Of a stretch of DNA of 64,000 bases, positions 5,002 through 56,500 are shown piece by piece. The stretch's first letter is position 1; each line of letters begins with the position of its first letter. The stretch lies in NCBI RefSeq assembly GCF_000234665.1, contig NC_018328.1, positions 62,001-126,000 on the forward strand. The letters run 5' to 3'. The DNA comes from Leishmania mexicana MHOM/GT/2001/U1103. Taxonomy: Eukaryota; Euglenozoa; Kinetoplastea; Trypanosomatida; Trypanosomatidae. The translations under genes and the position numbers were made by a program. The notes beneath the pieces were generated by a model. That model did no database searches. It had not been told where the DNA came from and worked only from the letters and a program-made list of their open reading frames with translations.

Positions 5002-8000
5002 ATGCCACAGCTCATGAAAGGCAGCTCACGTGTGAGTGAGCCGGTGTGCGACCCACCACTGGCATCAACCGCTTCACAAGTGCCGCTACCCCCGCAGGGC
5101 CTCAGTACCGGTCGCTCGAAAGTGGTTGCCGTCCCGCGCCACGGTGGCGGCGCGGTTGTGAGGTGGCACAGAGATAGTCCCGAGGTCAAGGTAACGGTGG
5201 GTGATGCGGCAGTGGACGCCAGTTGGGTGAGTGCGGTACGCCTCTCTGTCGACCCGCACACAGACACGGTGCAACTGACACTCCTGCGGCCTGGGGTGCG
5301 CACCTACGTTGATGGTCAGCGCCTGATGCGAATTGGTTCTCCCGTAGAGGTGCGCGCAACTCAACGAATATCCTTTGGTGCCGATTCAACCTCCTACATG
5401 GTAACGCCGGCCCCGCACAAGCTCGCTCCGGGCACGCTGCATGCGTGCCCGCCACCACCGTTGGCGGTGCCGGCGTATCGGGCAGCGGTCAGTCTGGAGG
5501 GGCAGATGTCGTCGCCTTGCACGTCACCGTCCTCATGTTTTTCGCCCTGCCTAGACTGCTCTTTGCCACCTCTGTGCGTTGACGAGGAAGGGGAACGCGA
5601 AACAGTCTCAGAATCCTCGCTTCTGGCAGCACAGTGGGTCTCGAAAATGCGTGGGTGTTGCCTTACCCACGCGTCGCGCAGCATCGCCGTCACGACTACC
5701 TCTACAGCAAAGGATGCAAGCGCTGTCCGCCAGACGACGGAGAAGTGCGCCATCAGCGCACCGCTGACGGAGAAGACACCAACGGACCTTCTTGTACAGT
5801 GCACCGCGACGGTGGCACGTTGCTCTGCGGACGTGGTGAGTACCACCACCGGTGCTGCTTTACCGCCCGCCCACTCGGAGGAGGAGTGGCTCGGGGCCGC
5901 GGCGTGCTCGCCGTCGCAGGGCCTCACTGGCGAGCAAGCGAACCCACCGGCATCCCTCTGCAACGAGACGGCTGAGCCAGCGCCGCGCAGGGACAAGGCG
6001 CGGCGCGGAATCTTCAAAGGTGAGTCGAGAGCGCGCACGCACCACCACACCAGGCCGTGCTGGACCTTCGACCCCGTTACCAGTGTGCGCTCCCCGGACT
6101 GGGAGGTTCTGCGTGCCATGCAGGGTGACACAACACCACCGGGGCCACAGGGCCTCTACCAGTTCAGCTGCGGCAGCGTCGGGTTCAATGATGCCATGAT
6201 GCAGCTTCGCAGAAGACGCGTTGGTCCCCTGGCACCTTCAGCGGGGGAGGTTGGACAACGCCCACAGCCTCTGAGGCCGCACTTGCAACGGTCTCGCGCG
6301 GCCCGGGACCGTGTAGCGCGCCACTCCAGCGGCGGGGTCTCTTTGGAGTTGACGGAGCGCACCTCCGGCAATGTGGAGGGCGGAGGTAAATCAACAGGCG
6401 CGCACGCGACGCCTTTGTCACGGGATGAGGCGGTCACCGAGCCCTCCAGTGTCCTGAGCAGCGACCTCACCGCTGCACAGAGTGCATGGCAGCATCCCTA
6501 TATGTGGGAAAAGCTGCACTTGTGTCCGCGCGTGACGATGAACCCATTTATTGTCGAAGTGTTCGGTAAGACGCATCGATATCGGCCGCTGGCTCACCTG
6601 AGCGACACGCAGCACGCAGATAGCAGTTGCAGCAGCACCAAGAGCGGTGATGGGGGTGCGCCAGTGGGCGTCTTTGACCGGTTTGCTGGCGTGCCTTGGC
6701 AGCACCCGATCGTCGCGGACGAGATAGTAACCCCGCGAACAGAGGCGCTGCTGCGCGATATCCTGCGGCGCCGCCCTGACTCGACGTCGGCCTCCGAAGA
6801 CGCGATCTTTCTGCACTGCGCCTTGCGACGCTCATACGACGCGGATACAGACCGCTTCTCGTACGTGGACTCACCGGCCTTCGTGCAGCTGATCTACACG
6901 AGATTCTCCTCTTTGCTAACGGCTATCAAGATACGTATGCAGACGAGTCGTCCAGTGTTGCGCCTGTCGTCACCGCTGCTGTGCGGCGGGGATTTACTTG
7001 GCAGCTTCGCGGACCTGATGGTGCTGCTCGACAGCGTCGCCCATTTTGCCCACTGGTCTACGATGCACACGCCGCTGCTGCTGCTCGGCAACTACGTGGA
7101 CGTCGGCTGGCACAGCGTGGAGGTGTGCATGCTGCTGTGCTGTTGGGCGTATTTGCAACCAAGCAAAGTGCACCTTCTTCGCGGCCCTCACGAGGACCCA
7201 GCAGTGAACGGCAACTACCGCCTGCTGGGAAAGCGCTGCCTGCGTTATAAGTGCCGGCAGCGCTATGGCTCGCGCAGGGGCATCGCCCTGTGGGCACAGC
7301 TGAACGATCTCTTTGCCCTGCTACCGGTGGCGGCGGTGATTGATGAGCGGGTATTTGCTACGCATGGCGGCGTGCCACTGCTGCGCGCGTCGACGGCACC
7401 GGGTGGCGAGGAGGAGAGGAGTGCTGCAACGCGGCACCAGCGTGGCGGCAAGACGCCAGTGCACTGCTTGTACAGCGGCACCTCTGGCTCTCCGACGCCG
7501 ACATCGTCGGATGCAATCACTCCGGTGTCCTCCTCGTTCCGCTCAGCAGCAGGCGTTTGCTCCGCGGAACGGCGGACTGCCTGTGCGCACGAGAGGGGCG
7601 GTGACGACGCTAGGGAGAGCGTGCTGTTTGCGCCGCTCCGTCCCTTCAGCATGCGGCATCACTGCTCACAGACGCCCGTGATGGAAGAACCACGCGATGC
7701 TATTACGGCGGAGTACGCTGAGGCGCAGAATGACATCACCGCGATCGAGCTGCTCTCACTCGAAGCGCTCTCCGGCGACCACGTGGACGGGAGCGATGGA
7801 TGCCCGAGGACCAGCACAGAATGCGCAGCGGCAAGCGGTGCGGTGGTCTCCGCCACGGCCTTTCCATCATCCCCGACGCCACCGAGTAATACCATGCCAC
7901 TTCCTCACCAGCGCATGACAGGGCTGGCACCCGAGGGCAGATGTGACATGAGCGCTGCCGTTGTGCTGCCAGCGGCAACCACCCAGGCCCCCACGTCAGC

Positions 8001-27004: not shown

Positions 27005-28690
27005 CGGCCACGCTGCACAGTCAGTAGAGGCGGCAGTGGTTTACGTGCTGTAACTGTCGGCGCGTGGGCAGCTACCAGCGTAGAAGGGTTACAAAAGACA
27101 ACGGGTCCCGGTTCCGCACACACGGACATGCAGGCACCTGTAACGATACTGCGCCTCTCTCGGTCATAGACTCCATAGATGGTCTGCCACTGCCTCGGCC
27201 CGTCTTCCGCATTGAAGGCGGCAGCCGGTGCTCTCTGTAGGAACTGAGCGGGGGATGGGGAGCCCAATATAATCGGTACATCACCGTTCCTCCATCCCCC
27301 ACCACGACTGTGCGCAGATGAGCCCACTCCTCACTCTCCGCTGTTCACGAGTCGTCGCTTGACTTGTCCTCCTCTGAGTCGCTTACGGCCTTGTCTACTT
27401 TGAGGAGGAGAGGAACTTTGTCCAAGACAGAGAGATCAACGCCACCCCAGGTATGCTTGCCTGAGTGCAGTCACTCGCGCGCTGGCTCGCTCTCTCTCGA
27501 ATCTCTCTAAAAACGTCAGCAGGTAGCATCGATGCCGCTGTGGTATGGACCAGCATGTCACTGCACCGCACATCAGAGAATAATAGGCGTGAGGGCCCTC
27601 ATCTCAGGCATCGGGATCGTCGCTCGACAGGTGTAAGGGGTGGATGTGCAGTCGCCCTGTTCCTCTCTGTGCGGATTTGTTAACGCTTCTACTGCCCTGA
27701 TGACAACGGGGACACATCTCAGTGCGTGGTATTCTCAGGTCTCAGCACGACGACTCACTCTGTGGGGGGAGCCTAGCGGCCCCTCAACCTCTGTCCCTGC
27801 CAATGCCGAGCCACCTCTGGTCGCGACAGGGTCTAGCGCCTGCGGCGCAGGGAGGTCAGTGCGATGTTGTGTCGCTGCTGATGTCCGCGGTCAGGTCCTG
27901 GGGGAGGAAGGGGGGCGGCGGCGGCGCTTGTTAAGGAGCCTCTCCTCCTGCCCCTTCCTGGGGCTTCGTCGTGGCCGCGGCAAATAGTGCCATCGATGAA
28001 AATCGTCCAGGCGTCTGTGCGATGATACCAAAGTTGCCGTCCCCAGCGCGCACGATATGCACACAAAGAACGCAGAACTGGGATCCAGCGAGGAGAAGAG
28101 GCGGGGTGTGAGCGCGAGGGCACGTGCATATATCGTGGGAGCGCCCCTTCCTCTTCACGTAGACGCGCGCGCGCGCGACTGTCAGCACTGGGGAGGCAAA
28201 GGCGAATGAAATGAAAAGACGCGCTCTACTCCGGAGGGAGGGGTGAACAACACACCCCTGCGCGACGGTGCGGCAATGTTCGCCGTGCGCCCCTCACGGA
28301 GACCTTCGGCGGTTCCAATCGCCCGCCTTCTCCCTGCCTCTCTCTCTCTCGCTGAGCGTATGCGAGACACTCTTTATTATCGCATAGGTCGCATCACCTA
28401 TCCGACACCCACATCGCATCAATACTCTCTCGCACCACCGAGCCTCTCTCCCACCCCACCCCACCCCCCGCCTTCTCCCCTCACCGCCCCTCTCCTCACG
28501 GCACCGGCTCCGTTGCTGCCAGCAATAGAAGCGCATCGACTCGCTTTGTACTCCCTCCTTCTGTCATCGCCTCACCCGTGCACAGCCGCCACCTCTCCTC
28601 CCCTCCCCTCCCGCCGTCCACCGTCCCCCTCGCCTCATACACGCACGCCTATACATACATAACAACGAAAAGGCACATCGGATAAGCGCC
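27005..28690 (+). other. intergenic region: 3' UTR with SIDER fragment, then FH leader
   Basis: No gene seen. The first part is the 3' UTR of the 319-residue gene. A SIDER-like fragment lies around 27719-27960. From about 28320 the sequence becomes pyrimidine-rich and leads to the fumarate hydratase start. Confidence 0.6.
27719..27960 (+). mobile_element. truncated SIDER-like retroposon
   Basis: About 240 bp closely match the first part of the element at 52990-53500, sharing GGGGAGCCTAGCGGCCCCTC, CCAATGCCGAGCCACCTCTG and GATGTCCGCGGTCAGGTCCT. The 3' half seen in the other copies is missing. Short interspersed degenerate retroposons in Leishmania 3' UTRs are known to affect mRNA stability and translation; assignment to SIDER is from repetition and position, not from a consensus alignment. 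Confidence 0.65.
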
Positions 28691-39621: not shown

Positions 39622-41123
39622 GCTCCGGACGGTTGTGGCAGAAGGGGGCAGGAGGGGACGGGCGCGTCCAGTGCGGAAACCATCCACGTAGGGCAGCTTG
39701 CCGAGTGCTTCGTCCAATTCATGAGCGCGTGTGCGCCGCACGCTTTCTTTCTGTTCCGTCTTCCTCGGTGGTCTGTCATTCTTCAGACCCCCAAGGATGG
39801 TCGGCGCGTGTGAGCGCTCCGCCGGACCAAAGTGAGTGGCTTGCAGAGACATGCGAAGCAGGAAGACGCGCGATATTCTTTTGATGTGCATAAGTGTTTT
39901 CTTTTATACTCCGCTATCAGCGCCTCGATGGCGCTGGCTACCTCACGGTGGTGACAGGGTCAGGCACCTACCCCCTAGAGGAGGCGAAAAAGATGTACCG
40001 CTGCGGATGTCGGTGGTCAGACCCGGAATGCCGTGGCGTTGGAGGAGCCTGCGACAGTGAACACGCTTGTGCCATCTGTGTGACCAAGCAGAGTGTAAGC
40101 GGGGCTGGAGTGTGTCTCTCAACACCGGCCCTCACACTGCCCACTCGTGTGGGGAGCCTGAGTGTCATCCCCGAGAGGGCTGCGCCACTTGGCGACCGGC
40201 ATAGTGGGAGCCACTGTTATGGGACCTGCGGACCGGGTATGGTGGGGGTGGGTAGGGCTTGAGGCAGGGGCCGTGCACCCGTGACTGAGCCGGCGCACAT
40301 TGCTGTAACGTGCGCGTGTGTGTGTGCCGCTGCTTCGCACGACGCCGATGGTGGGGCCTGTGGCAGGGCTGGTCGGTGGAGGGGTGGTGGTAGTCAGTGT
40401 GTCGTGTGGCAGGGAAAGGGACTTGGTCCATATAAAGTCAAGGAAATAAATGCGTTCACCGTTGCCCGTCACATTCTCTCTCACACTCGACGACCGTCGC
40501 CCGCGCTGAGCCGTTCAGTGTATGATCAAGAGGAGGGACGGAGGGGCGGGGGGGGGCGGAGTTTTCGATTCTGTCCGAACATGTGCGCCCTCTTGTCGCC
40601 GCCGCTCCCCACCCCCATCCGTCTGTTGCCTCCATGGGGCGGGGGCTCACTGGTGCAGGTCGACTTCTTCACGCCACAGGTGCAGCAAAGACAACACCCC
40701 CCCCCCACAAATACATATACATGTATATGTATGTAATAATCATAAAGGCAGGAAGGGAAGCGGCATCGATGGGCGTGCCGTCGTGTCGCGTGCACCGAAG
40801 TCTGACACTCCGCCCTCTGCACTTGTGTACATCGCTCTCTTTTTAGCGCAGAGGGCAGCAGGACGGGTACGCGCTCTGCGCCACTGGTACACGTGCAGGG
40901 ACTGCAGTCGTGGTGACAACCCGAGTATGCCTCTCTCCCTTCCTTTTCCTGCTTCTCTTCGCGGTGTCGCTTACTTGCCTGGCCTGCGGCGGCGGCTCCG
41001 ACTGAGCAGCGTACCAGCACATTGGGAGGTTCACCGCCTCTCGTGTTTCTTGCGCTTCCTCTGCGACCTCACCCTCGAAGGCACACGCATGTAGGCGTGT
41101 GTCTCTAAACACGGGGGCATATC
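39622..41123 (+). other. intergenic region: PIGO 3' UTR with SIDER-like element
   Basis: No gene seen. A SIDER-like element fills about 39925-40395; the remainder is pyrimidine-rich with short A/T-rich patches near 40430-40450 and 40700-40745. Confidence 0.6.
39925..40395 (+). mobile_element. SIDER-like degenerate retroposon in the PIGO 3' UTR
   Basis: The 3' half (from about 40060) matches 53220-53490 almost base for base, for example GCGGACCGGGTATGGTGGGG and GCACGACGCCGATGGTGGGG. The 5' half aligns more weakly with both other copies (GACAGGGTC, GTCGGTGGTCAG). Size (about 470 bp), 3' UTR position and dispersed repetition fit SIDER elements, known in Leishmania as post-transcriptional regulators. 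Confidence 0.7.
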
Positions 41124-43464: not shown

Positions 43465-43512
43465 GCCGCGCACGTGCACCAACGCATTGCTTCCCGGTGG
43501 GCTGCGGGTGCA

Positions 43513-43530
43513 CCCCCCCCCCTCCCCCAG
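43513..43530 (+). promoter_or_regulatory. strong pyrimidine-AG splice acceptor in unit 1
   Basis: Ten C residues, then TCCCCCAG. It is too far (1.1 kb) to be the obvious acceptor for the transporter, which has its own at 44597, and it lies 119 nt before the candidate 126-codon ORF. The same signal occurs at 50368-50383 in unit 2. Confidence 0.5.
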
Positions 43531-43648
43531 ACGAAGAAATGCCGGCGGCAAGTCCCCCGCGTGGCGGAGCTCCCTCGCTCGCCGTGGGCCGAGGGTGCGG
43601 CACAGGCAGACATCAAGCCAGGTGCGGCCGCACCGCCCCCTAGCCACC

Positions 43649-44029
43649 ATGCACGCATCGGTGCAGCGACAGGAGGCTGCGGCCCCCTTGCTTGCTGCCA
43701 TCGCGCTGAATGTGGCGCCGCGGAGCTGGGGCATGCCCCGCGACGCGGACAACTTGACCAGCCACGACGCAGAGGGCCACGCGTGGTCGGTGCTTAGGGG
43801 CTGGCGCACCCTCCTCGCGGCGCGCTTGGCCACCATTCGTGGCGCTGCGGGCCCGCCGCGCGCGCCTCATGTCCGCCTGTCTTTGGCCGCCGTGAGCTGG
43901 CGCACGACGGCGACGCTGACGAGCTTGCGACGTCTGCACCGCCAGAAGAGCCAACGCCAAGCCGACACTCCCTGTCACGCGCACGACAGACGCGGTCCGC
44001 CTATATCGAGGCGCACCGTCCACACGTGA
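43649..44029 (+). CDS. candidate small gene, unit 1 copy (126 residues), unknown function
   Basis: Tentative. The ATG sits in a GCCACCATG context, 119 nt after a strong pyrimidine-AG acceptor. Codon use is rich in GCG, CTG, GTG and CGC, as in the real genes here. The protein is Ala/Arg-rich and basic, with an amphipathic-looking stretch near residues 50-65 and no recognised domain or membrane segment. The copy at 50502 encodes the same protein: the two base differences inside the ORF (AGG/AGA and GCC/GCT) are both synonymous in this frame but would change residues on the opposite strand. That is suggestive but rests on only two sites, and a conserved 5' leader is the alternative. Confidence 0.4.
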   Translation: MHASVQRQEAAAPLLAAIALNVAPRSWGMPRDADNLTSHDAEGHAWSVLRGWRTLLAARLATIRGAAGPPRAPHVRLSLAAVSWRTTATLTSLRRLHRQKSQRQADTPCHAHDRRGPPISRRTVHT

Positions 44030-44574
44030 GCCTCTGCCTGGCGACGAGCAGCGCGCCAGGCGCATGGCCCGATTCGACGGCAGACGGTTCGTCCGAGACG
44101 CCCAGGATGTGGCTGTGGGGCGGCCGCAGAGGTGGCGCGCTGTGGTCGCGTGTCTGCGTCCGTTGGATGCGCTGTGCGCGGTGGCAGAGTGTACGGATGG
44201 AAGAGCAGCTGTATTTGTTTGGTGTGCCACAGTGCGCAAGGGTCGCGCTGCCCGCCCTTGCCGCGCCTCTCGCTGTTCTCGCCCCTCCCCGCCCCCATCG
44301 CGAGCCGAGCCCCTAACGCACCACTTTGTCTGTTAGTCGCCCCAGAATATGGCGCATGCATATACGGCGCCAAGCGTCCGAAGGGTCTCCAAGGCCACCC
44401 GCGTGAAGCGGCACCGCCGAATGCGGGTCGATGCGACGGGTGTCTTCCCCTCCCCTCCTCGTGTCCGCGCAAACGGCGTGTCTCGCCTGCACCTCCCCAC
44501 ACGCTCTCCCCCTCAACGCCTCTCTCGCCCTCCACCGCCCACGCCTGCTCTGACGAATCTCTCAAGAAACATTT

Positions 44575-44598
44575 CGTCTGCCGCTCCTCCCGCTCTAG
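44575..44598 (+). promoter_or_regulatory. probable spliced-leader acceptor for transporter copy 1
   Basis: GTCTGCCGCTCCTCCCGCTCTAG ends in AG at 44597-44598, 31 nt before the start codon. It is conserved exactly in the other unit (AG at 51448-51449). CTGCAG, 10 nt before the ATG, is an alternative. Confidence 0.5.
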
Positions 44599-44629
44599 GA
44601 CGTCACACCACCACCACTGCAGCGTCGAC

Positions 44630-46042
44630 ATGGCCAGCTTTCCTTCGCCACTGTGGGTGCGGCGCTACGTGCTCAACTTCAATGCCATGGCGCTGGTGCT
44701 GCTCGCGGTGCAGAACGCCGGTTTTATAATCTTGATGGGATACATTCAGCAGCGGATTGCAGCTTCTAATCGGGAGGCAGCACACGCAGGGATGAGGCCG
44801 CTAAAAGCATTTGCCGGGTCTCATTTCATGGCCACCGGCGAGATCCTAAAGCTCGTCATCTCCATTGCCTGGTGCAGCGTTCATGTCCTGCTCGAGATGC
44901 AGAAAGACGCCGAGTCACCACCGCTCCTCCATGGCAGCAGCGACGGTACGAGCAAGGCAGCCAAGTCGTCTGAAGCGAGCATCTTCCTCATACGTGATGA
45001 AGACGCGTCTGTCAGCTCGTCCTTAGAGAACTGGTCATCATCTCAAGGGCCCACGCCAATCTACGTCAGTGGTTGTGAGACACTGCAGGCGAGCAAGAAG
45101 CTAACGAAGGATCTGGAAGTGGCGTTAGGGGGGGCTGCTGAACCAACGGCAACTACGGTCCCGCTGCGGGTTCTGTTTGCCCGAAGGAGGTTCGCCGGTG
45201 TATTTCTGAGCCGCATGCGCCATGCCATCGGGCTGGACCACAAGTACAAGGAGACACTGCTCATGATTGTGCCCGCCATCGTCTACGCTATCCAGGGGCT
45301 GCTGCTCATCTACTCCCTGAAGCTGTTGGACCCGACCGTGTTTCAGGTCCTGTACCAGGTGCGCATCCTCTTCCTGGCGGTGATGATGCGGGTCGTGCTG
45401 GACTTCCGTCTCTCGCCGATCCGGTGGGGCGCGCTGGTGGCGCTGATGTTTGGCATCACGCTGGCACAGATGGGTGCGCAGAGCGCGCGAGCGGATATAA
45501 CAACCAGTAAGGCAGACGACGCTGCACGATCAGAGATGGAGAACGCTGCGGCGACCGAAAAGACCTCCAGCACGTGGTCAATGGAGGGTACGCTGGCTGC
45601 GCTCGCTGGCGGCTTCCTGAGCGCGTTCTCCGGTGTATTCATGGAGTTCGTGGTGAAGAAGCGCGGCAGCCAGTTTCACCTGTCGGCGCGCAACACCCAT
45701 CTCGCGTTCTTCTCCGTCGTGTACTTCTTCATTGTGTTCCTGTGCGAGATCTTTCAGCCGGAAGAGGGGGCGGGCGGGGTTGATGAGTTCGCAAGCACGT
45801 TCTTCGACGGCTTCACCGGGCTGGTGTGGTTCCTGGTGGTGCTGCAGGCAATTGGCGGGATTCTTGTGGCTCTGGTGGTGCGCTACTGCGACAACATCGT
45901 CAAGTCGTTCTCGACGGCGTTCGCGATTGTGCTGAGCGGCACGGCGTCCGTGTATCTGTTCCACACGCCGCTGAACGGGTCGTTTCTGATGGGCTCCCTC
46001 CTTGTGCTCACCTCCATCACCATGTACACTATGAGTGAGTGA
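44630..46042 (+). CDS. nucleotide-sugar transporter, UDP-galactose type (LPG5A-like), copy 1
   Basis: A 470-residue SLC35A-type Golgi transporter, probably moving UDP-galactose (or UDP-GlcNAc) into the lumen in exchange for UMP, for phosphoglycan synthesis. Family blocks are clear in the C-terminal two thirds: a YAIQGLLLIYSLKLLDPTVFQVLYQ helix pair, GGFLSAFSGVFMEFVVKK, and RYCDNIVKSFSTAFAIV near the end. About ten membrane helices are expected. Residues 1-31 and 177-462 equal copy 2, while 32-176 are unrelated in DNA and only loosely similar in protein pattern (SHFMATGEILKLVIS versus SHFLATTELVKLFLS). The C-terminus ends MYTMSE. The frame is open about 500 bp upstream, but the start is set by the conserved ATG in both copies, just after the acceptor. 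LPG5A naming is from memory. Confidence 0.9.
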   Translation: MASFPSPLWVRRYVLNFNAMALVLLAVQNAGFIILMGYIQQRIAASNREAAHAGMRPLKAFAGSHFMATGEILKLVISIAWCSVHVLLEMQKDAESPPLLHGSSDGTSKAAKSSEASIFLIRDEDASVSSSLENWSSSQGPTPIYVSGCETLQASKKLTKDLEVALGGAAEPTATTVPLRVLFARRRFAGVFLSRMRHAIGLDHKYKETLLMIVPAIVYAIQGLLLIYSLKLLDPTVFQVLYQVRILFLAVMMRVVLDFRLSPIRWGALVALMFGITLAQMGAQSARADITTSKADDAARSEMENAAATEKTSSTWSMEGTLAALAGGFLSAFSGVFMEFVVKKRGSQFHLSARNTHLAFFSVVYFFIVFLCEIFQPEEGAGGVDEFASTFFDGFTGLVWFLVVLQAIGGILVALVVRYCDNIVKSFSTAFAIVLSGTASVYLFHTPLNGSFLMGSLLVLTSITMYTMSE

Positions 46043-47095
46043 AGGCAGCTCAGGGGGACCCCACACTGTAGGGGAGTCTGTTCGTGGGCTCATGTGCATG
46101 TACATGTACATTGTGTGTGTGTGTCTTGCGGTGGGAATACGGAGGCTCCTTCTCTGCAGTGTAATGCGCGTTGCAGTGCTCTACGTGGACGCCTGGCGAA
46201 TGTAAAGAGGAAAAACAAATGGCTGCGCATCGTTGCATCTGTGCTCTTTGTGTGTGTGTGTCGTCTGTCTCCGGCAAGCTGTCTCTCTCTCTCTCTCTCG
46301 CTCCCTGATAGCGCGCCGTCGCCGTTTCAGGCGTCATGTGCCTGCGTGCGTACGTGCGTGACATCGCCGTTGGCGCGGTGCGTTGGGTGCGCGAGGGGGA
46401 GACTGTGAATGACGACAAGTCGTGAGGAGCGTGTCGTTTTTCTTCGTATTCATTACGCTTTCTTACTCTCTGGAGTCTTAGCTCAGCTCCCTCCCCCCTC
46501 CCCGCCTCCCACGCAGCGCTATTCAGCACCAACCCACTCGCTCTTTGTGTCCCTCTGTATGCATGTCTGGTGGTGGTATCTAAGAATGTGCGCGTGAACG
46601 GAGGCCGTTTATTTTTATTCCTATTTTGCGCGTGTGTATCTGTGTGCAGTACCTCCGGCTCCACGCCCACTCGCTCCTCTCTCTCCGTGTTTGTTGTTGC
46701 CCTCGGTGCCGTTGTTTTCGCTGTTTCGACTGCTCCACGTGTTGGATGCGCTCGCATCCATACCACTGCTTCCTGATCACCGGCGCGCCGATTTGGCTCG
46801 TGTGTGTGCGTGTTGCCTGACGCGCACCTCTCTCTCTCCCTCGTGGATATGTTGCGCACGTGTCGGGGACGCTGCGTAGGGCAAACAGACCAACGCACAC
46901 ACACACACACACGCACACGCACGCATCACTTTTAGCGCTGCTCTGTGTGGAGTTATTCGCTATTTGATTCGGCATGCGAGGAGGAGGAGGAGGGAGGGGG
47001 GCTGCTTTCCGCGGTTGACTGTCGATGTAGGGCCTCCCTCCCTCTCCCCCCATCCCTCCCCTCACGCCCTTCACGTTTTCCTTCTATTTTGTTTT

Positions 47096-47139
<44 letters not shown>

Positions 47140-47800
47140 GCTTCTTGCTGGAAATGGGCGTCTTCTCCGTCTCGGCATTTTTCCGGCATCGCGGATTTTA
47201 CCGCTGCCGCTCGCTTTCCCAATGTATGCGTATCTCTCTCAATACGCTCGCCCCCCCCTTCCCCCCTTCTCCCCCTCCTCCCCCACCCCCACCCCCCGCC
47301 CGCCCAACAATGCGAGGGCATCGCCTTCATCTCATCTCCAGCCGCCTTGTTCCGTATTTTGTCTTGTTCTCGTGGACGTTTGTCTCTTTTCTTTCACTCT
47401 CAGATGGTGTCGGGGGGAGGGAGAAGGGCATCTCAGCGTGGTAGTCGGAGTGTAGCATCCACTCTGTGTGTGGGGGGTGGGAGGGAGGGGAGGGCCATGC
47501 AGCCGCTGCCGCGGAGCCGAAAAGACTCGCGGCCGTCGTCATTTTTGGACCAGCTCACTACGAGTCGTGCCGGCGGTTCAAGATACATATATATCTATCT
47601 TCCTTTTTTTTCGTGCTTTAGCGATGTTGCTGTTGTGCTGAACGTGATCCTGGTCCTCGCCCGCCCTGCACGCACTGCAATCGCCGTGGGCTGGTCGACG
47701 TTGCGCGGTGTTGATCGGCCCGCCTCCTTGAAGCATCCTCGATACAGGCCTGTGCTCTGCAAGCGAGGCATTCCATACGGACACCCCCTGCAAGGCGTTT
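46043..47800 (+). other. intergenic region: 3' UTR of transporter copy 1
   Basis: No gene seen. Strong GT runs (46113 region and the 47101 microsatellite), a CT run near 46280 and C-rich tracts near 47255-47310. It is unrelated to the sequence after copy 2, so the two mRNAs would have different 3' UTRs. Confidence 0.6.
47092..47136. repeat. T9 followed by (GT)18 microsatellite
   Basis: Nine T residues, then 18 uninterrupted GT units: the longest perfect dinucleotide run in the window. Confidence 0.95.
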
Positions 47801-49044
47801 GATCCCCTCTGGTGGTCACCATGGCGGTGTAGCGATGGAGGAGACGCACCGCTGTTGCGTCTCGGGGCGCACACCGCAGGACAGGGATACGGCTTTGTGC
47901 CCTCTCCTCGGTCTCAGAGACTTGGTTGCCGCAGTGGCGGTCTGACTTTGCGGCGGTGACCTTACTAGACGCAGGGAGTTCTCGATGAGATGCCAAGCAA
48001 TGTCGCAGCCACTCCTCACACTTTCGGGACGGACACCGGCCCGCACCACCCGCTGTGGAGTACGGAAAGACGACCCGGCCGAGCTGAGGCCACCGCTAAA
48101 AAAAAGAAACTGGGCCAGTCACAACTACGTGACATGCACAGGCGCTAACGACACCTCGGCATGGCCCAGCGCAGACGGGGCCCCGGAGACGGCACCCTGG
48201 CGCTCGTCTGCCTCATGTAAGATTGTGTCCCCGTCATCACGGAGCAGAATGGCCAGTGTGTGGTCGCGCTCACTGTCCGCTTCGGGGAGAGATATGGCCC
48301 GGTGCCCCCATTGATGGCTGGCACCCCAGTGTGCTCCTTTCCCCAAGCGAACTGAAAACGACACCGCGCCGTGGTTGGCAAGTCAGTCCGAAAAGACCGT
48401 GCCCACCACAGCCGCAGAGAAGTGAAGATTCGCGAGTATCACGGCGCCGTGCTGACCTCCACAACAAGGACAAGCCGAAAGCGCGCCGGGGAGGGACGGT
48501 GAATCGACCATGCAGCCGCACCCACCGCCACCACACCCCACATACGCAAGCTACGTAGTATCCCGCTAGGATAAGGCAGGTTTGATGTCTATACTAGTAG
48601 CGAAGACCGCCAGAAAAGGCCGCTCTCCTGGTGAAGCCGTCTATAGCTGAGGCGACTGGAAGTCGCTCGTGAGAAGGCAGTCCCGCGCGTCGCCAGGGCA
48701 TTGCCCTCTCTGGCATATGGCCATCAGCGAGCTTGAACGGGGAGTTTTTTGGGAGGATGGATAGAGCCCCACAGCGCCCTCACCTCCAGCAGCTTTCCAT
48801 CGCGGGCAAGCATCCAGGCTGTCCATGTCCGCACACGCACCGCACAAACCAGCAGTGAGACAGGACGACCGCCACTTCAGTGCGAGAGAGCAGGCCAACG
48901 GACTGCTGACGATGCGCCAACAAAGGTTCAAGCGACATCCGGCAGCCCCGCCACCCCCCCCCGTGTGCCACCGAGACCTCGGCGCCACGCCTTTCAAACC
49001 TCTTAGGACGAGGGGTGAGCGCATGGTGGGCTTGATGAAGCTCA

Positions 49045-50140
49045 CTGCGGCTCCGCCCCGGGCGTGACGACGCTCTCTGTGACAACGTCAAGGTCCTACC
49101 AGTACACGGCAAGAGAGCTCAGGTAAAGGTCTTTACGAGAGCGCTGCCGCCCCCTGCAGTCCTCCTAGACGGATAGAGTGGCCCATGGGGTCCTTCCTAT
49201 GACCACACATGCCTGGTGATGATCCTACGTCCTCCGGCCCCTGTGACCCTGACCCTAACCCTAACCCTTGGAAGTTACTGGAGCGACTGGTCTCGCGATG
49301 ACTGCGCGACCATCGGGAAAGCAGGCTTTAACCATAGCACTCTGGCTTCCGCCCTCACAGCTCCACCGTGGACGCTGTGGACTCGCCTATTCGCAGAGTA
49401 TAACGGCGCCAGTCAGGACCCAAGACAGGAGCAGTGCTCGCGGACTTCGCTCTCGCGTTCGACCCGCTAGAACGCGGTCGCTTTCGTGGCGCTGGAAAAG
49501 TGCAGCATAAAGTCCCTACTTTGTCCGCGAGATCATAGATCCCGTGGACGATTGTCGCACCCGTGTTCGCCTTCGCAAGACAAGAGCGGTGATGGCCAAG
49601 CTTGCACGCCGAGTCCCAGAAGGGTGAGCTGTATGCCCCTGTCTTCATTGTAGCGGGCTCGCTGGGTGTGAAGCTCAGCAAAATCCCCGGGCCGCACCAC
49701 GCTGTCTGCGCGGATGACCTCACACTCCCGGCACTCTCTACAGACATGGTTGCCATATAAGCCATGCGGCAGTGTGCCCCGCGGAAGAGAGAACGCTGGA
49801 AACTGGAGCGGTTTGCGGAGCTGAGTGCGCACCCGAAACAAGGCGCGCCCTCCTCGGCGTAGACGCCCAGCCGGTGCGCTGCGTTGCCGACACGGTGCAT
49901 AAATGGCCGAAATAAATACAGCGACTGCGCCTCGACCTGCCAAAGGGAGGGCGGGTTGCCTCCGCCCGTTCTACATGGCACCTTCCGCATTGACATTTCT
50001 CTACGGCACCACCGCTTGGTGCGACAGTGCTCGCTAAACGCCGCGCAAGCCCTCTTGAGCACCTTCGAACCGGGGCAGTCGCAGTCATAGCTGGCACCAC
50101 CAAAGACACGCAGCGAACAGCAACACCTCATCGAGGAGGC
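49045..50140 (+). pseudogene. reverse transcriptase remnant of ingi/L1Tc clade
   Basis: Conceptual translation gives the RT landmarks in order. PGRDDALCDNVKVLP (from 49057) is the entry to the domain. A P-V-T-L-T element is near 49241. LERLVSR comes at 49278, then SGFRPHSSTVDAVD at 49341. Motif A AVLADFALAFD is at 49431-49463, and a motif-B-like KGELYAPVFIV follows. The catalytic CADDLTL is at 49707-49727. An LYGTTAW element is at 49999, and a thumb-like LEHLRTGAVAVIAG lies near 50050. The core 49278-49760 stays in one frame but contains several stops (first TGA at 49299). The upstream and downstream parts need two further frames. It is therefore non-functional. The order and spacing match LINE-type RT of trypanosomatid ingi/L1Tc elements. 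Confidence 0.85.
49240..49269. repeat. telomere-like CCTAAC run inside the RT relic
   Basis: GACCCTGACCCTAACCCTAACCC: about three units, the first imperfect, of the kinetoplastid telomeric hexamer (C-rich strand). It lies where the RT would encode the Pro-Val-Thr-Leu-Thr element and is probably a local expansion of that sequence. Confidence 0.7.
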
Positions 50141-50367
50141 CCATCTACGGAGCTTCAACTCCATCGTTGCTCTTCGCCGAACCCGTCCTTATCCCTACGC
50201 CGTCGCACAGGGTGTCGAGTTTGCGCATTCAGCAAATGATGCGCACACGCTGGATGACGGTGATGTCACAGTGTTTTGCAAGGTACCACACGGGTGTGCA
50301 AGCATCGACCCAGTGCGGTGCCGCGCACGTGCACCAACGCATTGCTTCCCGGTGGGCTGCGGGTGCA

Positions 50368-50383
50368 CCCCCCCCTCCCCCAG
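50368..50383 (+). promoter_or_regulatory. strong pyrimidine-AG splice acceptor in unit 2
   Basis: Eight C residues, then TCCCCCAG, 118 nt before the candidate small ORF. Counterpart of the site in unit 1, with two fewer C residues. Confidence 0.5.
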
Positions 50384-50501
50384 ACGAAGAAATGCCGGCG
50401 GCAAGTCCCCCGCGTGGCGGAGCTCCCTCGCTCGCCGTGGGCCGAGGGTGCGGCACAGGCAGACATCAAGCCAGGTGCGGCCGCACCGCCCCCTAGCCAC
50501 C

Positions 50502-50882
50502 ATGCACGCATCGGTGCAGCGACAGGAGGCTGCGGCCCCCTTGCTTGCTGCCATCGCGCTGAATGTGGCGCCGCGGAGCTGGGGCATGCCCCGCGACGCG
50601 GACAACTTGACCAGCCACGACGCAGAGGGCCACGCGTGGTCGGTGCTTAGAGGCTGGCGCACCCTCCTCGCGGCGCGCTTGGCCACCATTCGTGGCGCTG
50701 CGGGCCCGCCGCGCGCGCCTCATGTCCGCCTGTCTTTGGCTGCCGTGAGCTGGCGCACGACGGCGACGCTGACGAGCTTGCGACGTCTGCACCGCCAGAA
50801 GAGCCAACGCCAAGCCGACACTCCCTGTCACGCGCACGACAGACGCGGTCCGCCTATATCGAGGCGCACCGTCCACACGTGA
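50502..50882 (+). CDS. candidate small gene, unit 2 copy (126 residues), unknown function
   Basis: Encodes exactly the same 126-residue Ala/Arg-rich protein as the unit 1 copy despite two base differences. It has the same GCCACCATG context and upstream acceptor. Conservation of the DNA around it is equally high, so retention of the frame is not strong evidence by itself. It may be a real small gene or part of a conserved leader. Confidence 0.4.
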   Translation: MHASVQRQEAAAPLLAAIALNVAPRSWGMPRDADNLTSHDAEGHAWSVLRGWRTLLAARLATIRGAAGPPRAPHVRLSLAAVSWRTTATLTSLRRLHRQKSQRQADTPCHAHDRRGPPISRRTVHT

Positions 50883-51425
50883 GCCTCTGCCTGGCGACGA
50901 GCAGCGCGCCAGGCGCATGGCCCGATTCGACGGCAGACGGTTCGTCCGAGACGCCCAGGATGTGGCTGTGGGGCGGCCGCAGAGGTGGCGCGCTGTGGTC
51001 GCGTGTCTGCGTCCGTTGGATGCGCTGTGCGCGATGGCAGAGTGTACGGATGGAAGAGCAGCTGTGTTTGTTTGGTGTGCCACAGTGCGCAAGGGTCGCG
51101 CTGCCCGCCCTTGCCGCGCCTCTCGCTGTTCTCGCCCCTCCCCGCCCCCATCGCGAGCCGAGCCCCTAACGCACCACTTTGTCTGTTAGTCGCCCCAGAA
51201 TATGACGCATGCATATACGGCGCCAAGCGTCCGAAGGGTCTAAGGCCACCCGCGTGAAGCGGCACCGCCGAATGCGGGTCGATGCGACGGGTGTCTTCCC
51301 CTCCCCTCCCCGTGTCTGCGCAAACGGCGTGTCTCGCCTGCACCTCCCCACACGCTCTCCCCCTCAACGCCTCTCTCGCCCTCCACCGCCCACGCCTGCT
51401 CTGACGAATCTCTCAAGAAACATTT

Positions 51426-51449
51426 CGTCTGCCGCTCCTCCCGCTCTAG
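51426..51449 (+). promoter_or_regulatory. probable spliced-leader acceptor for transporter copy 2
   Basis: Same pyrimidine tract and CTCTAG as unit 1, 31 nt before the start codon. Confidence 0.5.
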
Positions 51450-51480
51450 GACGTCACACCACCACCACTGCAGCGTCGAC

Positions 51481-52836
51481 ATGGCCAGCTTTCCTTCGCC
51501 ACTGTGGGTGCGGCGCTACGTGCTCAACTTCAATGCCATGGCGCTGGTGCTGCTCGCGGTGCAGAACGCTGGATATCTGGTCTTGATAAGCTATTCACAG
51601 CAGCAGGGGAAAGAGTACCCGCTGGCTGCTGGCGGTGTAGAAACGGACGAGGAGGAGGTGCGTACGGTCACCTTCAAGGCTTCGCACTTTCTCGCCACGA
51701 CGGAGTTGGTGAAGCTCTTTCTATCTCTCCTGTGGTGCGCCCTGGACGAGGCGCGGGCAATGCAACAGGAGCGCTGTTCTGCCGACGCAGTCACCACACC
51801 AACGGCGGCGTTGCTAGTTGAGGGTTCCGGGCGGAGCAATATCGCGACATTTGCCGAGACACCCAAATCGATCGCGGATGCGTCGTGTCAGCTCTCGCAC
51901 AATCTCGACGACGTCATAGAGGACATGGATGCCGAATCCCCCGATCACGCCGTCCCGCTGCGGGTTCTGTTTGCCCGAAGGAGGTTCGCCGGTGTATTTC
52001 TGAGCCGCATGCGCCATGCCATCGGGCTGGACCACAAGTACAAGGAGACACTGCTCATGATTGTGCCCGCCATCGTCTACGCTATCCAGGGGCTGCTGCT
52101 CATCTACTCCCTGAAGCTGTTGGACCCGACCGTGTTTCAGGTCCTGTACCAGGTGCGCATCCTCTTCCTGGCGGTGATGATGCGGGTCGTGCTGGACTTC
52201 CGTCTCTCGCCGATCCGGTGGGGCGCGCTGGTGGCGCTGATGTTTGGCATCACGCTGGCACAGATGGGTGCGCAGAGCGCGCGAGCGGATATAACAACCA
52301 GTAAGGCAGACGACGCTGCACGATCAGAGATGGAGAACGCTGCGGCGACCGAAAAGACCTCCAGCACGTGGTCAATGGAGGGTACGCTGGCTGCGCTCGC
52401 TGGCGGCTTCCTGAGCGCGTTCTCCGGTGTATTCATGGAGTTCGTGGTGAAGAAGCGCGGCAGCCAGTTTCACCTGTCGGCGCGCAACACCCATCTCGCG
52501 TTCTTCTCCGTCGTGTACTTCTTCATTGTGTTCCTGTGCGAGATCTTTCAGCCGGAAGAGGGGGCGGGCGGGGTTGATGAGTTCGCAAGCACGTTCTTCG
52601 ACGGCTTCACCGGGCTGGTGTGGTTCCTGGTGGTGCTGCAGGCAATTGGCGGGATTCTTGTGGCTCTGGTGGTGCGCTACTGCGACAACATCGTCAAGTC
52701 GTTCTCGACGGCGTTCGCGATTGTGCTGAGCGGCACGGCGTCCGTGTATCTGTTCCACACGCCGCTGAACGGGTCGTTTCTGATGGGCTCCCTCCTTGTG
52801 CTCACCTCCACCACCATGTACGCCCTCAAGAAGTAA
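51481..52836 (+). CDS. nucleotide-sugar transporter, UDP-galactose type (LPG5A-like), copy 2
   Basis: A 451-residue paralogue of copy 1 with the same first 31 residues and the same sequence from V158 to near the end. Residues 32-157 form a different segment that includes the end of the first helix, a loop with an acidic ETDEEEVRTV stretch, the second helix (SHFLATTELVKLFLSLLWC) and a long hydrophilic loop. The C-terminus ends MYALKK rather than MYTMSE. The shared C-terminal part carries the family's nucleotide-sugar transporter signatures, so both copies should be active folds, but substrate or regulation may differ because helices 1-2 and their loops differ. Its 3' UTR holds a SIDER-like element, unlike copy 1. 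Either copy could be the gene known as LPG5A; I cannot tell which. Confidence 0.9.
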   Translation: MASFPSPLWVRRYVLNFNAMALVLLAVQNAGYLVLISYSQQQGKEYPLAAGGVETDEEEVRTVTFKASHFLATTELVKLFLSLLWCALDEARAMQQERCSADAVTTPTAALLVEGSGRSNIATFAETPKSIADASCQLSHNLDDVIEDMDAESPDHAVPLRVLFARRRFAGVFLSRMRHAIGLDHKYKETLLMIVPAIVYAIQGLLLIYSLKLLDPTVFQVLYQVRILFLAVMMRVVLDFRLSPIRWGALVALMFGITLAQMGAQSARADITTSKADDAARSEMENAAATEKTSSTWSMEGTLAALAGGFLSAFSGVFMEFVVKKRGSQFHLSARNTHLAFFSVVYFFIVFLCEIFQPEEGAGGVDEFASTFFDGFTGLVWFLVVLQAIGGILVALVVRYCDNIVKSFSTAFAIVLSGTASVYLFHTPLNGSFLMGSLLVLTSTTMYALKK

Positions 52837-52989
52837 CAGCTCCTCGAGCTGAGCGACGGATAGGGGAGGGGAGACGCATCAGTGTTTCTCAGTGGGCGGT
52901 AGCCCTACTTGCATGTGTTGATGCAGCGCCCGTGTTGTTGTGTGCATGCGGAAAGCTCAGTTACTCCTGAAGCGGGGTGCGCACACAAC

Positions 52990-53500
52990 TCAGCGCGCAG
53001 TATCACAGGGTCCAGCTCACACCCACTCTCTCTGTAGGGGGAGCCTAGCGGCCCCTCAACCTCTGTCTCTGCCAATGCCGAGCCACCTCTGGTCGCGACA
53101 GGGTCTGGCGCCTGTGGCACAGGGAGGCCAGTGCGATGCTGTGCCGCTGCTGATGTCCGCGGTCAGGTCCTGGGGGAGGAAGGGGGGGCGGCGCTGCGTC
53201 GGTGCCTCCTGCTGCAGCGCCCACGCTTGTGCCATCTGTGTGATGGGCAGTGCGTGTGCGTGACCCGAGCGTATCTCGCCTGGACCCCACCGCCCATTTG
53301 GTGGGGAGGGTGAGTGTCATCCCGAGGAACATAGCAGGTCGCCACCTGCGGACCGGGTATGGTGGGGGTAGGGCTTGAGGCAGGGGCCGTGCACCCGTGA
53401 CTGAGCCGGCGCACATTGCTGTAACGTGCGCGTGTGTGTGCCGCTGCCTCGCACGACGCCGATGGTGGGGCCTGTGGCAGGGCTGTTGATAGGAGGTCGC
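52990..53500 (+). mobile_element. SIDER-like degenerate retroposon in the 3' UTR of transporter copy 2
   Basis: The most complete of the three related elements: its 5' half matches 27719-27960 and its 3' half matches 40060-40390. Size is about 510 bp, sense orientation, starting about 150 bp after the stop codon. It would place this transporter mRNA, but not copy 1, under SIDER-type control if such elements act here. Confidence 0.75.
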
Positions 53501-56500
53501 AGCTGGAGTGTAGCGGGAACCCCTTTCACGGAAGGGGCGCGTTGAAGAGCCGAAGTTGGCTCACAAGCCGTCACGTGCGATAGGTGTTTGCTACGCACGC
53601 CTCACGTGGTGCGTGTATGGCGGCGGGTTGCATTGGTGCAGACGTGTCTGCGCAACATCCTGCAAGGCAGCCGTGCGTTCTTGGTAGGTGGAGGGTGACA
53701 CTGTGTGGGCGGGGGGTACTCAAGGGCACAGTGTCTGGCCACGGATTCTCGCTTCCTGCGTCAGGGTTGTCGTTGAATTCCCCCCTCCCCACCCCGACTC
53801 TTCGCGTGGAGGAGGGAGGAGGGGGGGGGCAGACAGTGGCCTTGTCGAAGGGGAGAGACTCTGTCGTGGTGTAGCGATGTGCGACTGCTTGCTCGCTTGC
53901 TTAACATGTTCTCCCTCTGTTCGGTGTTTCTTCTGCCATTTCTTATGTTAAAGTGTTTCATTTATCTTTTGTTTTCATGTGTATGCGTCGCGGGCGTGCA
54001 GGCCGCATGGCCGACATCCCCCTTCCATGTCGTGCACCTCCCTCCCCCCGCCCTTCCATCGTTTGTGTGTGTTTTCGAGTGAGCCCCACGCATCTCTCCT
54101 CGCCTACGTTTTGTTTCTCTCTCCTGTGTGCATAGAGGCCACAGGGTTGGCGGCGGCGGCGGCGACGGCGGCGGAAGAGGCCCGGTGTATCGCGCGCTTC
54201 TCCGCAAGGGGAAGCTAATCGTGTCAAAGAAGAGTGCAGGAGGGAGGAAGCGGATGCTGCTTTACCATATCAGCGTAGGTCGACAGACAGCCTGCCCTCC
54301 TCTGCACACACGCACAGGTAGGCATTCCCAGGCGGCAGGCCCTCTGTTGCGCGCTCTCGATGGGCGGCCTGCGCCGTAAGTGTGTGCGTGCATGGAGGGG
54401 AATGCACCGCGGGTAGGTATTAAGGGAAGGCGAGTAGAGGTGGTAGAAGAGGTCCTTCATCTTGTGGCTTTCTGGGTGAGGTTCGCCATGGGCGGGGCTT
54501 CCTCCCCTCCCCTCCCCCCAATCGATACAACTGCATTCGATACCCTGATACCCTCTCAGCACCGGTGCCGCATTGACATCTATACGCAGTCACTGTCGAA
54601 CTTGTCGCTGCGTGCAGGTGTGCTGCGCTGCCATTGGTGTTCGCAGCGAACCTGTTTGGTTGGTTGGTTGGTCTCATCTCCCATCTTCTGCGTACAGGAG
54701 TACCGGTATAAACACTTGTCTCGTGAGTGTGTGTGCTCGTGTAGGCGTGCTCATAGACCATGCTGGATACGGATTACGTGATCCGACACAGAGATATGTC
54801 CTGTGTGTGTGGGCGTGTCCGTGGTTGCTGGTGGCGCCAGCTCGCCCTCTTCCAACATTTTCTCCCCCCTCGCGCACATATATATCGGCTTCGGGTGCCT
54901 CTACACATCTGTCCAAACGGTGAGCGGCAAAAGAATGGGCAGTAGCTCAACGGAGGGCACCTCGACATGCCGCATCCCCCCGCGAGTCTAGAGCGTGCTG
55001 CGCGGCTTGAAAACTCATTTTGAACAAGGATCCGTCAAAACGGAACACGAAAACGCACGTTTACATCAAGGAAGACGCCAAGACCGGGCCAAGGGCCAGT
55101 CCGGGTTGTGGGCGCGGCAGCCGGATGGGAACACATAGATGGAATTTGGTACCTTCTCCCCTCCCCTCCCCTCCCTTTTATGTATGCCGTTATGCCGGCA
55201 ATACATGTCTGGCGAAAGTGGGTGAGGCGTTGTGGTCCCTCCCCACACAATTCGAACGCCAACACAGTCTCCCATAGGTATGTACGTATATGTATAACGC
55301 CCCTCTCTCCTCCCCCTTAGCCGTGCATGTCCATCTATCTATATGTACATGTAGCTTCTGTATAAGTGTTTCGGTGTCTGTGTGTGTGTGTGTGGGTGTG
55401 TCGGTGGTGGGTGTTATTCTTCATCTTTTCCCGCCCGCCCTCCCTCCTCCCCTCCCCGCTTCTCGATATATCTTTTTTCTTGGATACGCCCCATAAGACG
55501 GGGCGTTCCTGTTAATGCATCCCGTGTTTCCCTCCCCTTCCCCCTCCCCTTCCCCCCTCTCTCTCTCTTCCACCTCCTCCCCCCTCCCCCCACCCACATA
55601 CACAGACACATACTCATCTTCTTATCTCGTTGCCGTTGCTTCTTCAGTCACAGGGAGCTGAGTGATGAGCGTGCGCAAAGACCAGCTCTCTTGTTGTTGC
55701 TTCCTTGTGTTGTCCTTGCACGACACGACACGGCATTTGTAGGGGAACGTTATGCGCTGCGCTGGTGACACCCACGTGCTGCTGCAAAGCACTTCACCCC
55801 GCCGTGTCCCACCATGCTGTACTGTACCTTCCCAGGCTCATCATTTCTCAGTGTAGCCTCATTCCCTTTTAGTGCCATTGGCATCTTCCTCTGCATTGTG
55901 CTGCAGTTCACGTGCCGGGATGCGGCTTGTCCGTTGAACCTTTTTTGTTTTTAGTTTTGAGGCACGAGGCATACCGGCAACTCACTTCGCCCCTCCCCCC
56001 TCTAGTGGCTTGGAGCGGGTGGCACTGTCTATACGGACTGCGCGACAAGAGGACTCCCACCAATATGTGTAAGCTCACTCGCGACGGTTCAAGAGATGTT
56101 TTACGGCCCGTCGTTCAAGCAGCGTCATGGCTGTGCATGCTCTCTCCCAGAAACAGACGATAGTGAAGTTGTGCTCGACCAGTGCCCCGGCGGCTTTACT
56201 CCCGTCACCGCTTAGTGGGACGCGTTTTGCAGACCTGGCCAAAGCTCCACCTGAAGGATCCATGGAGACCGGCGAGCGTAGTAATAAGACGCGGCGGAAT
56301 GTGTGCGCCGAGATATAGATGGCGGAGTGCGGAAAAGCGCATGCGGCTGGCCCGGGACCGCCGGCAAGGAGCCCGTCACGGTCTCCTCACTCCCTCACCC
56401 CCTCTTCTACTTGGACGCGTTGACACCCCTGCTCTTCTTATGTCCGCCTTGCCACCCCTAGACACACAAACACGCTGGATTCATAGAACGCCTCGGCCTT

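What the first reader, a model, noticed from the sequence alone, without database searches (positions are those of the whole stretch)
44630..52836. Two transporter genes that differ only by an internal cassette
Residues 1-31 are the same in both and from V177/V158 to residue 462/443 no difference was noticed, over 859 bp of DNA. Yet 439 bp in copy 1 and 382 bp in copy 2 between these blocks are unrelated at DNA level, and the edges of similarity are abrupt. The non-coding 5' flank is about 99% identical over 1.2 kb, far more conserved than this coding segment. That pattern fits repeated gene conversion of the flanks with the cassette protected or selected to differ, or a past segment swap. The cassette covers the end of helix 1, helix 2 and the loop between helices 2 and 3, so it could change substrate choice or regulation.
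Basis: partly seen in the sequence, partly recalled or inferred. Interest (0 to 1): 0.82.

Follow-up and report, generated by a model that had tools for sequence, protein, structure and literature searches.

The report
Twin sugar-nucleotide transporters with different inserts
Two neighbouring Leishmania genes for a sugar-nucleotide carrier keep copying most of their sequence from one another, yet one inner segment has stayed different since before at least two of the species split, giving ready-made natural variants to test what that segment does.

Summary
Two tandem nucleotide-sugar transporter genes (PF04142; in print as LPG5A or LPG5A/B array) share 859 bp of identical 3' coding sequence and a 1.27-kb 5' block at 98.7%; between lie 439 vs 382 bp encoding segments only about 26% identical. 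Between L. mexicana (window) and the L. donovani complex, diagnostic sites group by copy in the cassette (41 copy, 0 species) and by species in the N- and C-blocks (15 species, 0 copy). L. orientalis has a pair with identical C-blocks and a second cassette that is probably, not certainly, the same type. So the flanks were converted after speciation while an old cassette difference survived; a one-off swap or recent duplication does not fit. The donor here was probably copy 2. A third, decayed copy-2-type gene lies on C20. Residues mapped to nucleotide choice in human relatives lie in the shared block or are kept in both cassettes, so the cassette more likely alters regulation, targeting or partners than substrate class. 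Why it stays different (selection, or divergence too great for recombination) is open. New example of a known kind.

The parts
43465..44736 (+). 5' homogenised block of copy 1 (upstream DNA plus about 30 codons)
   Evidence: 98.7% to 50320-51587; its first 736 bp also at G000 C24:145106-145840, 99%
44630..46042 (+). copy 1 (type A) nucleotide-sugar transporter ORF, 470 aa
   Evidence: PF04142 E 1e-54
44719..45157 (+). cassette A: end of TM1, loop, TM2, long TM2-3 loop
   Evidence: type A shared with L. donovani P0001; single place in own genome by DNA search
45158..46016 (+). C-block of copy 1, identical to copy 2 over 859 bp
46017..46042 (+). divergent C-terminal tail and stop of copy 1 (ends MSE)
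   Evidence: P0001 also ends with E
50320..51587 (+). 5' homogenised block of copy 2
51481..52836 (+). copy 2 (type B) nucleotide-sugar transporter ORF, 451 aa
   Evidence: PF04142 E 6.5e-54; model pLDDT 71.8 matches CMP-sialic acid transporter structures
51570..51951 (+). cassette B
   Evidence: B clade of 13 rows, support 97/98
51952..52810 (+). C-block of copy 2
52811..52836 (+). divergent C-terminal tail and stop of copy 2 (ends LKK)
52989..53495 (+). dispersed repeat (SIDER-like; by resemblance only) 3' of copy 2, not seen 3' of copy 1
   Evidence: query 52830-53700 gave 45 matches over many contigs; query 46043-47143 gave 13: itself and 12 stretches of 30-45 bp

Best explanation
The pair is an old tandem duplicate of a UDP-sugar transporter (LPG5A group). 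Type A and type B had already diverged before L. mexicana and L. donovani split. Since then, gene conversion inside each lineage has overwritten the 5' flank plus the first ~31 codons, and the last ~286 codons, while the segment between (end of TM1, TM2, disordered TM2-3 loop) and the C-terminal tail kept their old A or B identity. In this genome the donor was most likely B and the recipient A, so copy 1 is now an A cassette and A tail in a B backbone. Shown: the mosaic, the species/copy discordance, and its recurrence. Inferred: gene conversion as the mechanism, its direction, and function: both copies carry the same UDP-sugar transport core, and the cassette plus tail and 3'UTR change regulation, sorting or partner binding rather than the substrate class (my odds for that functional part about 0.45; the confidence below is for the evolutionary part).
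For: Diagnostic sites, L. mexicana pair vs L. donovani/infantum pair: N-block 3 species: 0 copy; cassette 0:41 (1 third pattern); C-block 12:0; tail 0:1; Fisher p 6e-14 for cassette vs N+C (sites not fully independent). In-frame translation of the 5' flank 13:0 (part of that alignment is gappy). L. mexicana vs L. orientalis: cassette 0:8, C-block 41:0. Within pairs: C-block 286/286, 282/286, 288/288; cassette 31/121, 40/119, 34/120. Across species A-A cassette 92/143, B-B 106/126. Cassette tree: mexA+donA 99/99, B clade 97/98; in the C-block tree each pair falls with its own species (mexA=mexB and oriA=oriB identical; donA+infB+P0003 86/73). AU test on the cassette rejects mexA+mexB (p 1.5e-54) and donA+infB (p 2e-6). 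Direction: the C20 relic is 1.5% from copy 2 in the cassette (5/327) and 1.7% in the C-block (14/804), so copy 2's parts share one history; L. orientalis A keeps its own N-terminus while L. mexicana and L. donovani A carry the B-like one. Substrate: the sites of E52, K55, S188 and K272 of SLC35A1 and of Q278 of SLC35A2 hold the same residues in both copies; the Y214/G239 site is Ala in both.
Against: Type A was found in 3 of the 11 lineages compared (9 Leishmania, Porcisia, Novymonas): window, P0001 and, probably, P0004; the other eight gave only B, so the A/B pair is not universal, or A was missed (the collection is clustered at 90% and candidates are capped). L. orientalis A joins the A clade at only 84/68, and oriA+oriB as a clade is not rejected (AU p 0.08); L. 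donovani vs L. orientalis cassette sites are 2:8, not 0:8. An origin of A within Leishmania is not rejected either (p 0.068). The L. donovani-complex pair is two cluster representatives under two species names. No foreign DNA was at hand, so no dN/dS and no nucleotide tract ends elsewhere. P0017 bears no species name. Several pocket positions differ from both human proteins (K124 to Arg, T128 and Q129 to Leu, N102 to Gly), though alike in both copies. The copy 1 model is poor (pLDDT 47).
Confidence: 0.86

Rival explanations
1. Selection holds the cassettes apart: A and B are functionally different modules and conversions that cross the cassette are removed, as in the primate red/green opsin exon 5. 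(A cause for the pattern in the best explanation, not an alternative to it.)
For: Difference kept through at least the mexicana/donovani split, while both flanks were overwritten; Glu and Lys of the nucleobase pocket kept in both cassettes. Flanking near-identical blocks of 1.27 and 0.86 kb should allow repair across the cassette now and then. A published L. mexicana screen lists the mutant of LmxM.24.0365 among gain-of-fitness mutants in sand flies (passages).
Against: Eight of 11 lineages showed only type B, so A may be dispensable there; A-A cassette identity (92/143) is well below B-B (106/126), as with weak constraint. That 0365 is copy 2 is my inference from gene order; whether that mutant was a full null I did not see; and the same paper's introduction cites reduced colonisation of L. 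major after LPG5A/B deletion.
Confidence: 0.42
2. Mechanical protection only: once the cassettes had diverged, recombination could no longer enter, so conversion tracts stop at the edge of homology; no selection for difference.
For: Longest shared exact word 9 nt, as in shuffles; at protein level the tract ends fall within about eight codons of each other in three lineages (printout), where similarity ends.
Against: Does not explain why tracts did not span the cassette from both sides in these lineages, nor how divergence built up at first under conversion.
Confidence: 0.45
3. One-time segment swap: a foreign cassette was recombined into one of two otherwise identical genes.
For: Sharp edges; low GC3 of cassette A (0.62; 2 of 241 overlapping chunks of 11 other window ORFs are as low).
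Against: C-blocks are identical within L. mexicana yet differ from L. donovani, so homogenisation is later than the shared cassettes; L. orientalis A has a different N-terminus too.
Confidence: 0.05
4. Assembly artefact: the repeated blocks were collapsed and pasted in both places.
For: The genome is in 545 contigs.
Confidence: 0.02

Closest known systems
LPG5A UDP-galactose transporter genes of Leishmania (PMC6993435, PMC13004518)
   Same: Same genes by published description: two LPG5A copies in L. mexicana (passages); 'LPG5A/B gene array (LmxM.24.0360-65)' (passages).
   Different: The passages I read report copy number or deletion phenotype, not the mosaic. The two papers name the array differently (LPG5A copies; LPG5A/B). 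L. major LPG5A itself was not compared.
Primate red/green opsin exon 5: divergence peak under gene conversion (PMC3924837, passages)
   Same: Homogenised flanks, an island that groups by copy across species.
   Different: There two amino acids drive a known colour shift; here ~145 residues at about 26-34% identity, cause unknown.
GOT1p1/GOT1p2 of the copepod Tigriopus (PMC3728101, abstract)
   Same: Mosaic of high and low divergence in paralogs under conversion.
   Different: Enzyme genes studied between populations of one species; no transporter helix/loop module.
Partial gene conversion in trypanosomatid tandem arrays (PMC1855330, PMC1810246, passages)
   Same: 21 of 47 T. brucei arrays held chimaeric copies; PGK isoforms by conversion.
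   Different: 'Nucleotide sugar' does not occur in the main text of PMC1855330; in the passages I saw no island kept by copy across species.
SLC35A1/SLC35A2-type transporters (6oh3, 6i1r)
   Different: Much longer TM2-3 loop in the window proteins.

Membership tests
Nucleotide-sugar transporter (PF04142, SLC35A type) | Pfam domain above curated cut-off | tested here: met
   186.2 and 183.6 bits against cut-off 27
Nucleotide-sugar transporter (PF04142, SLC35A type) | fold of the family (ten-helix drug/metabolite transporter) | tested here: met
Nucleotide-sugar transporter (PF04142, SLC35A type) | Glu/Lys of the nucleobase pocket in TM2 (E52, K55 of SLC35A1) | tested here: met
   E71/K74 and E75/K78; invariant in 23 of 23 aligned proteins
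Nucleotide-sugar transporter (PF04142, SLC35A type) | transports a nucleotide sugar, Golgi location | not testable with these tools
   needs assays
LPG5A (UDP-Gal transporter of Leishmania) | orthology to L. major LPG5A | not tested
   no L. major sequence was fetched by name; best hit P0001 is named UDP-galactose transporter, putative
LPG5A (UDP-Gal transporter of Leishmania) | two copies in L. mexicana beside a single LPG5B | tested here: inconclusive
   two intact copies plus one decayed one, and a distant relative on C18; published count two; that C18 is LPG5B and that the genome is L. mexicana are my inferences
Mosaic concerted evolution with a retained island | flanks closer within than between species | tested here: met
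   the N-block in L. orientalis is the exception (11/25)
Mosaic concerted evolution with a retained island | island groups by copy across species | tested here: met
   mexicana/donovani complex 41:0; for L. orientalis inconclusive
Mosaic concerted evolution with a retained island | selection against conversion in the island | not testable with these tools
   no foreign or population DNA at hand
SIDER retroposon (3' repeat) | 79-nt signature II at the 5' end | not tested
   only dispersed repeat similarity seen

The most novel reading that the evidence does not exclude
Leishmania and its kin run a two-module scheme: one shared UDP-sugar transport core, kept identical by conversion, fitted with either of two ancient TM2/cytosolic-loop modules (plus matching tails and 3'UTRs) that send or tune the carrier for different glycosylation routes. 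The same design arose or persisted in Leptomonas, and selection keeps the modules apart where both exist.
Probability: 0.27. Interest if true: 0.75.

Novelty: new member of a known kind. Interest (0 to 1): 0.56.

Why it matters
The two genes are natural chimaeras: same core, different TM2/loop module and tail. That isolates a little-studied part of nucleotide-sugar transporters for testing without engineering, in carriers that feed the surface phosphoglycans of Leishmania. It also warns that whole-gene trees, copy counts and guide or probe designs for LPG5A will be misled, because most of the gene tells species history while the cassette tells copy history.

Tried and rejected
Recent duplication with a fast-evolving cassette: rejected, since A and B cassettes are shared across species. 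Segment swap: see rivals. GC-biased conversion as the reason for high GC3 in the blocks: the C-block value (0.825) is ordinary (35% of 241 chunks reach 0.82); only cassette A is unusual, so I drop it. More type A relatives: three protein searches showed none beyond P0001 and P0004. Copy 1 structure: poor model, not used for searches. A viral fold search was not needed; 3 of 116 matches had E <= 0.001, all giant-virus proteins, two of them named EamA; not used. Dating the A/B split before Porcisia/Novymonas: the best tree says so, the test does not reject the alternative (p 0.068; 0.083 without the long L. orientalis A row). Of three AU tests on the C-block, two could not run and one was uninformative because rows are identical. 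Literature: ten searches in the held library; no listing or passage I saw describes this mosaic; the original LPG5A/B paper (Capul 2007) is not held and supplements were not open to me, so I cannot say it is not in print. TransLeish (PMC11696137, passages) does not name these genes in its main text. Rows dropped: of 35 proteins returned in all, 21 went into the trees with the two window proteins (A1); P0022-P0035 were left out of the trees as distant; P0001, P0003, P0019, P0032 and P0035 were left out of A2, the alignment for the second model.
Full report
What is there. The window lies on contig C24 (839 kb) of a 32.0-Mb, 545-contig genome. Two ORFs on the + strand, 44630-46042 and 51481-52836, both match PF04142, nucleotide-sugar transporter. 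The protein of the cassette is nevertheless homologous (31 of 121 aligned residues, with a shared TM2 motif). The last few residues differ, and the 3' flanks gave no match to each other.

A wider look in the genome. A search with copy 1 gave 7 matching stretches at 5 gene places: the two genes, a copy on C20 (two stretches), a distant relative on C18 (two stretches, 31% and 46% identity; a 562-aa ORF; probably LPG5B, by recall of its chromosome) and a weak one on C15. The C20 copy is B-type and decayed: deletions of 76, 39 and 27 nt against copy 2 inside the coding part. Its coding part differs from copy 2 by 1.5% (5/327, cassette) and 1.7% (14/804, C-block), but its 3' flank by 16% (22/136), and its 5' flank beyond about 24 bp finds no match. 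This fits an old dispersed copy whose coding part was once refreshed from the chromosome-24 locus. Equal divergence of cassette and C-block means copy 2's parts travelled together, so copy 2 (B) is the likely donor of copy 1's C-block.

Other species. Three searches of the protein collection (31, 22 and 29 proteins) gave 21 close relatives that I aligned with the two window proteins. Type A cassettes: window copy 1, P0001 (L. donovani) and probably P0004 (L. orientalis). Type B: window copy 2, P0002 (L. infantum), P0005 (L. orientalis, next locus tag to P0004), P0003 and P0006-P0014. Region identities within the three pairs (L. mexicana, L. donovani complex, L. orientalis): N-block 31/31, 31/31 and 11/25; cassette 31/121, 40/119 and 34/120; C-block 286/286, 282/286 and 288/288. 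Across L. mexicana and the L. donovani complex: A-A cassette 92/143, B-B 106/126, C-block 271/286 and 273/286.

The decisive count. For the four proteins of L. mexicana and the L. donovani complex I counted sites supporting 'by species' or 'by copy': N-block 3:0, cassette 0:41 (one third pattern), C-block 12:0, tail 0:1. The in-frame translation of the 5' flank gives 13:0. Fisher's exact test of cassette against N+C gives 6e-14 (sites are not fully independent). With L. orientalis the cassette gives 0:8 (L. mexicana) and 2:8 (L. donovani complex), the C-block 41:0 and 36:0. Trees agree: cassette mexA+donA 99/99, with oriA 84/68, and 13 B rows 97/98; in the C-block tree pairs fall with their species, with middling support for the L. 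donovani complex (86/73). AU tests on the cassette reject mexA+mexB (1.5e-54) and donA+infB (2e-6), but not oriA+oriB (0.08). Thus the L. orientalis cassette is probably, not surely, type A. A like habit appears in Leptomonas pyrrhocoris (three proteins on contigs of one length; P0018 vs P0020: C-block 270/272, cassette 77/117) and perhaps Lotmaria (P0016/P0017, 261/273 and 68/123, but P0017 is unnamed).

How it works. Because substitutions that distinguish the species are shared by both copies of each, the C-block was homogenised after the split in each lineage; because the cassettes share copy-specific residues across the split, they were not. At protein level the tract ends lie within about eight codons of each other (printout). 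In L. orientalis copy A keeps its own N-terminus, whereas in L. mexicana and L. donovani it carries the B-like one, so the 5' conversion looks later and again B to A. The mechanism (gene conversion) is inferred from pattern, as is usual. Whether selection or mere lack of pairing keeps the cassette apart I cannot decide; about even odds. Eight of the 11 lineages compared showed only type B, which speaks against A being needed everywhere.

Known or new. That L. mexicana has two LPG5A copies is in print (PMC6993435, passages). Islands of divergence under conversion are a known kind (opsins, GOT1; chimaeric copies in trypanosome arrays). My ten searches did not turn up this mosaic, but the original LPG5A/B paper was not held. 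I file it as a new member of a known kind, with an unusually wide and divergent cassette, and directly testable.

Noticed in passing
G000 C20:3061788-3062989 (within L008, about 6655-7998): Decayed type-B copy of the transporter on another chromosome; coding part 1.5-1.7% from copy 2 but 3' flank 16% different, suggesting past interchromosomal conversion of the coding part.
   Followed up: yes
window 43465-44200 and 50295-51053; G000 C24:145081-145840: A piece of the 5' flank (736-760 bp) occurs a third time about 33 kb downstream of copy 2 at 99% identity, and a dispersed repeat follows about 170 bp later; possible recombination or gene-amplification repeat.
   Followed up: partly
window 27712-27920, 40224-40371, 52989-53495: Pieces of one dispersed repeat family. 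Against the piece 3' of copy 2, five nearby pieces on C24 are 89-97% alike and one 72%; the other listed matches, further C24 ones included, are 66-79%.
   Followed up: partly
P0003 (L. donovani, contig 744887) against P0002: A further L. donovani gene on another, smaller contig (chromosome 20 by size, inferred): C-block 284/286 to P0002 but cassette 97/118, and missing the end of TM1; conversion between chromosomes may recur.
   Followed up: partly
5' flank before 44630 and 51481: Database proteins P0001/P0002 start 89 codons upstream of the shared start; in the window that frame holds no usable ATG before these starts, so the longer N-terminus in those records may be an annotation artefact.
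   Followed up: no
residue 470 / 451: Last residue is Glu in A of L. mexicana and L. donovani; in most of the other aligned proteins the chain ends with Lys or Arg. The A tail is outside the conversion tract.
   Followed up: no
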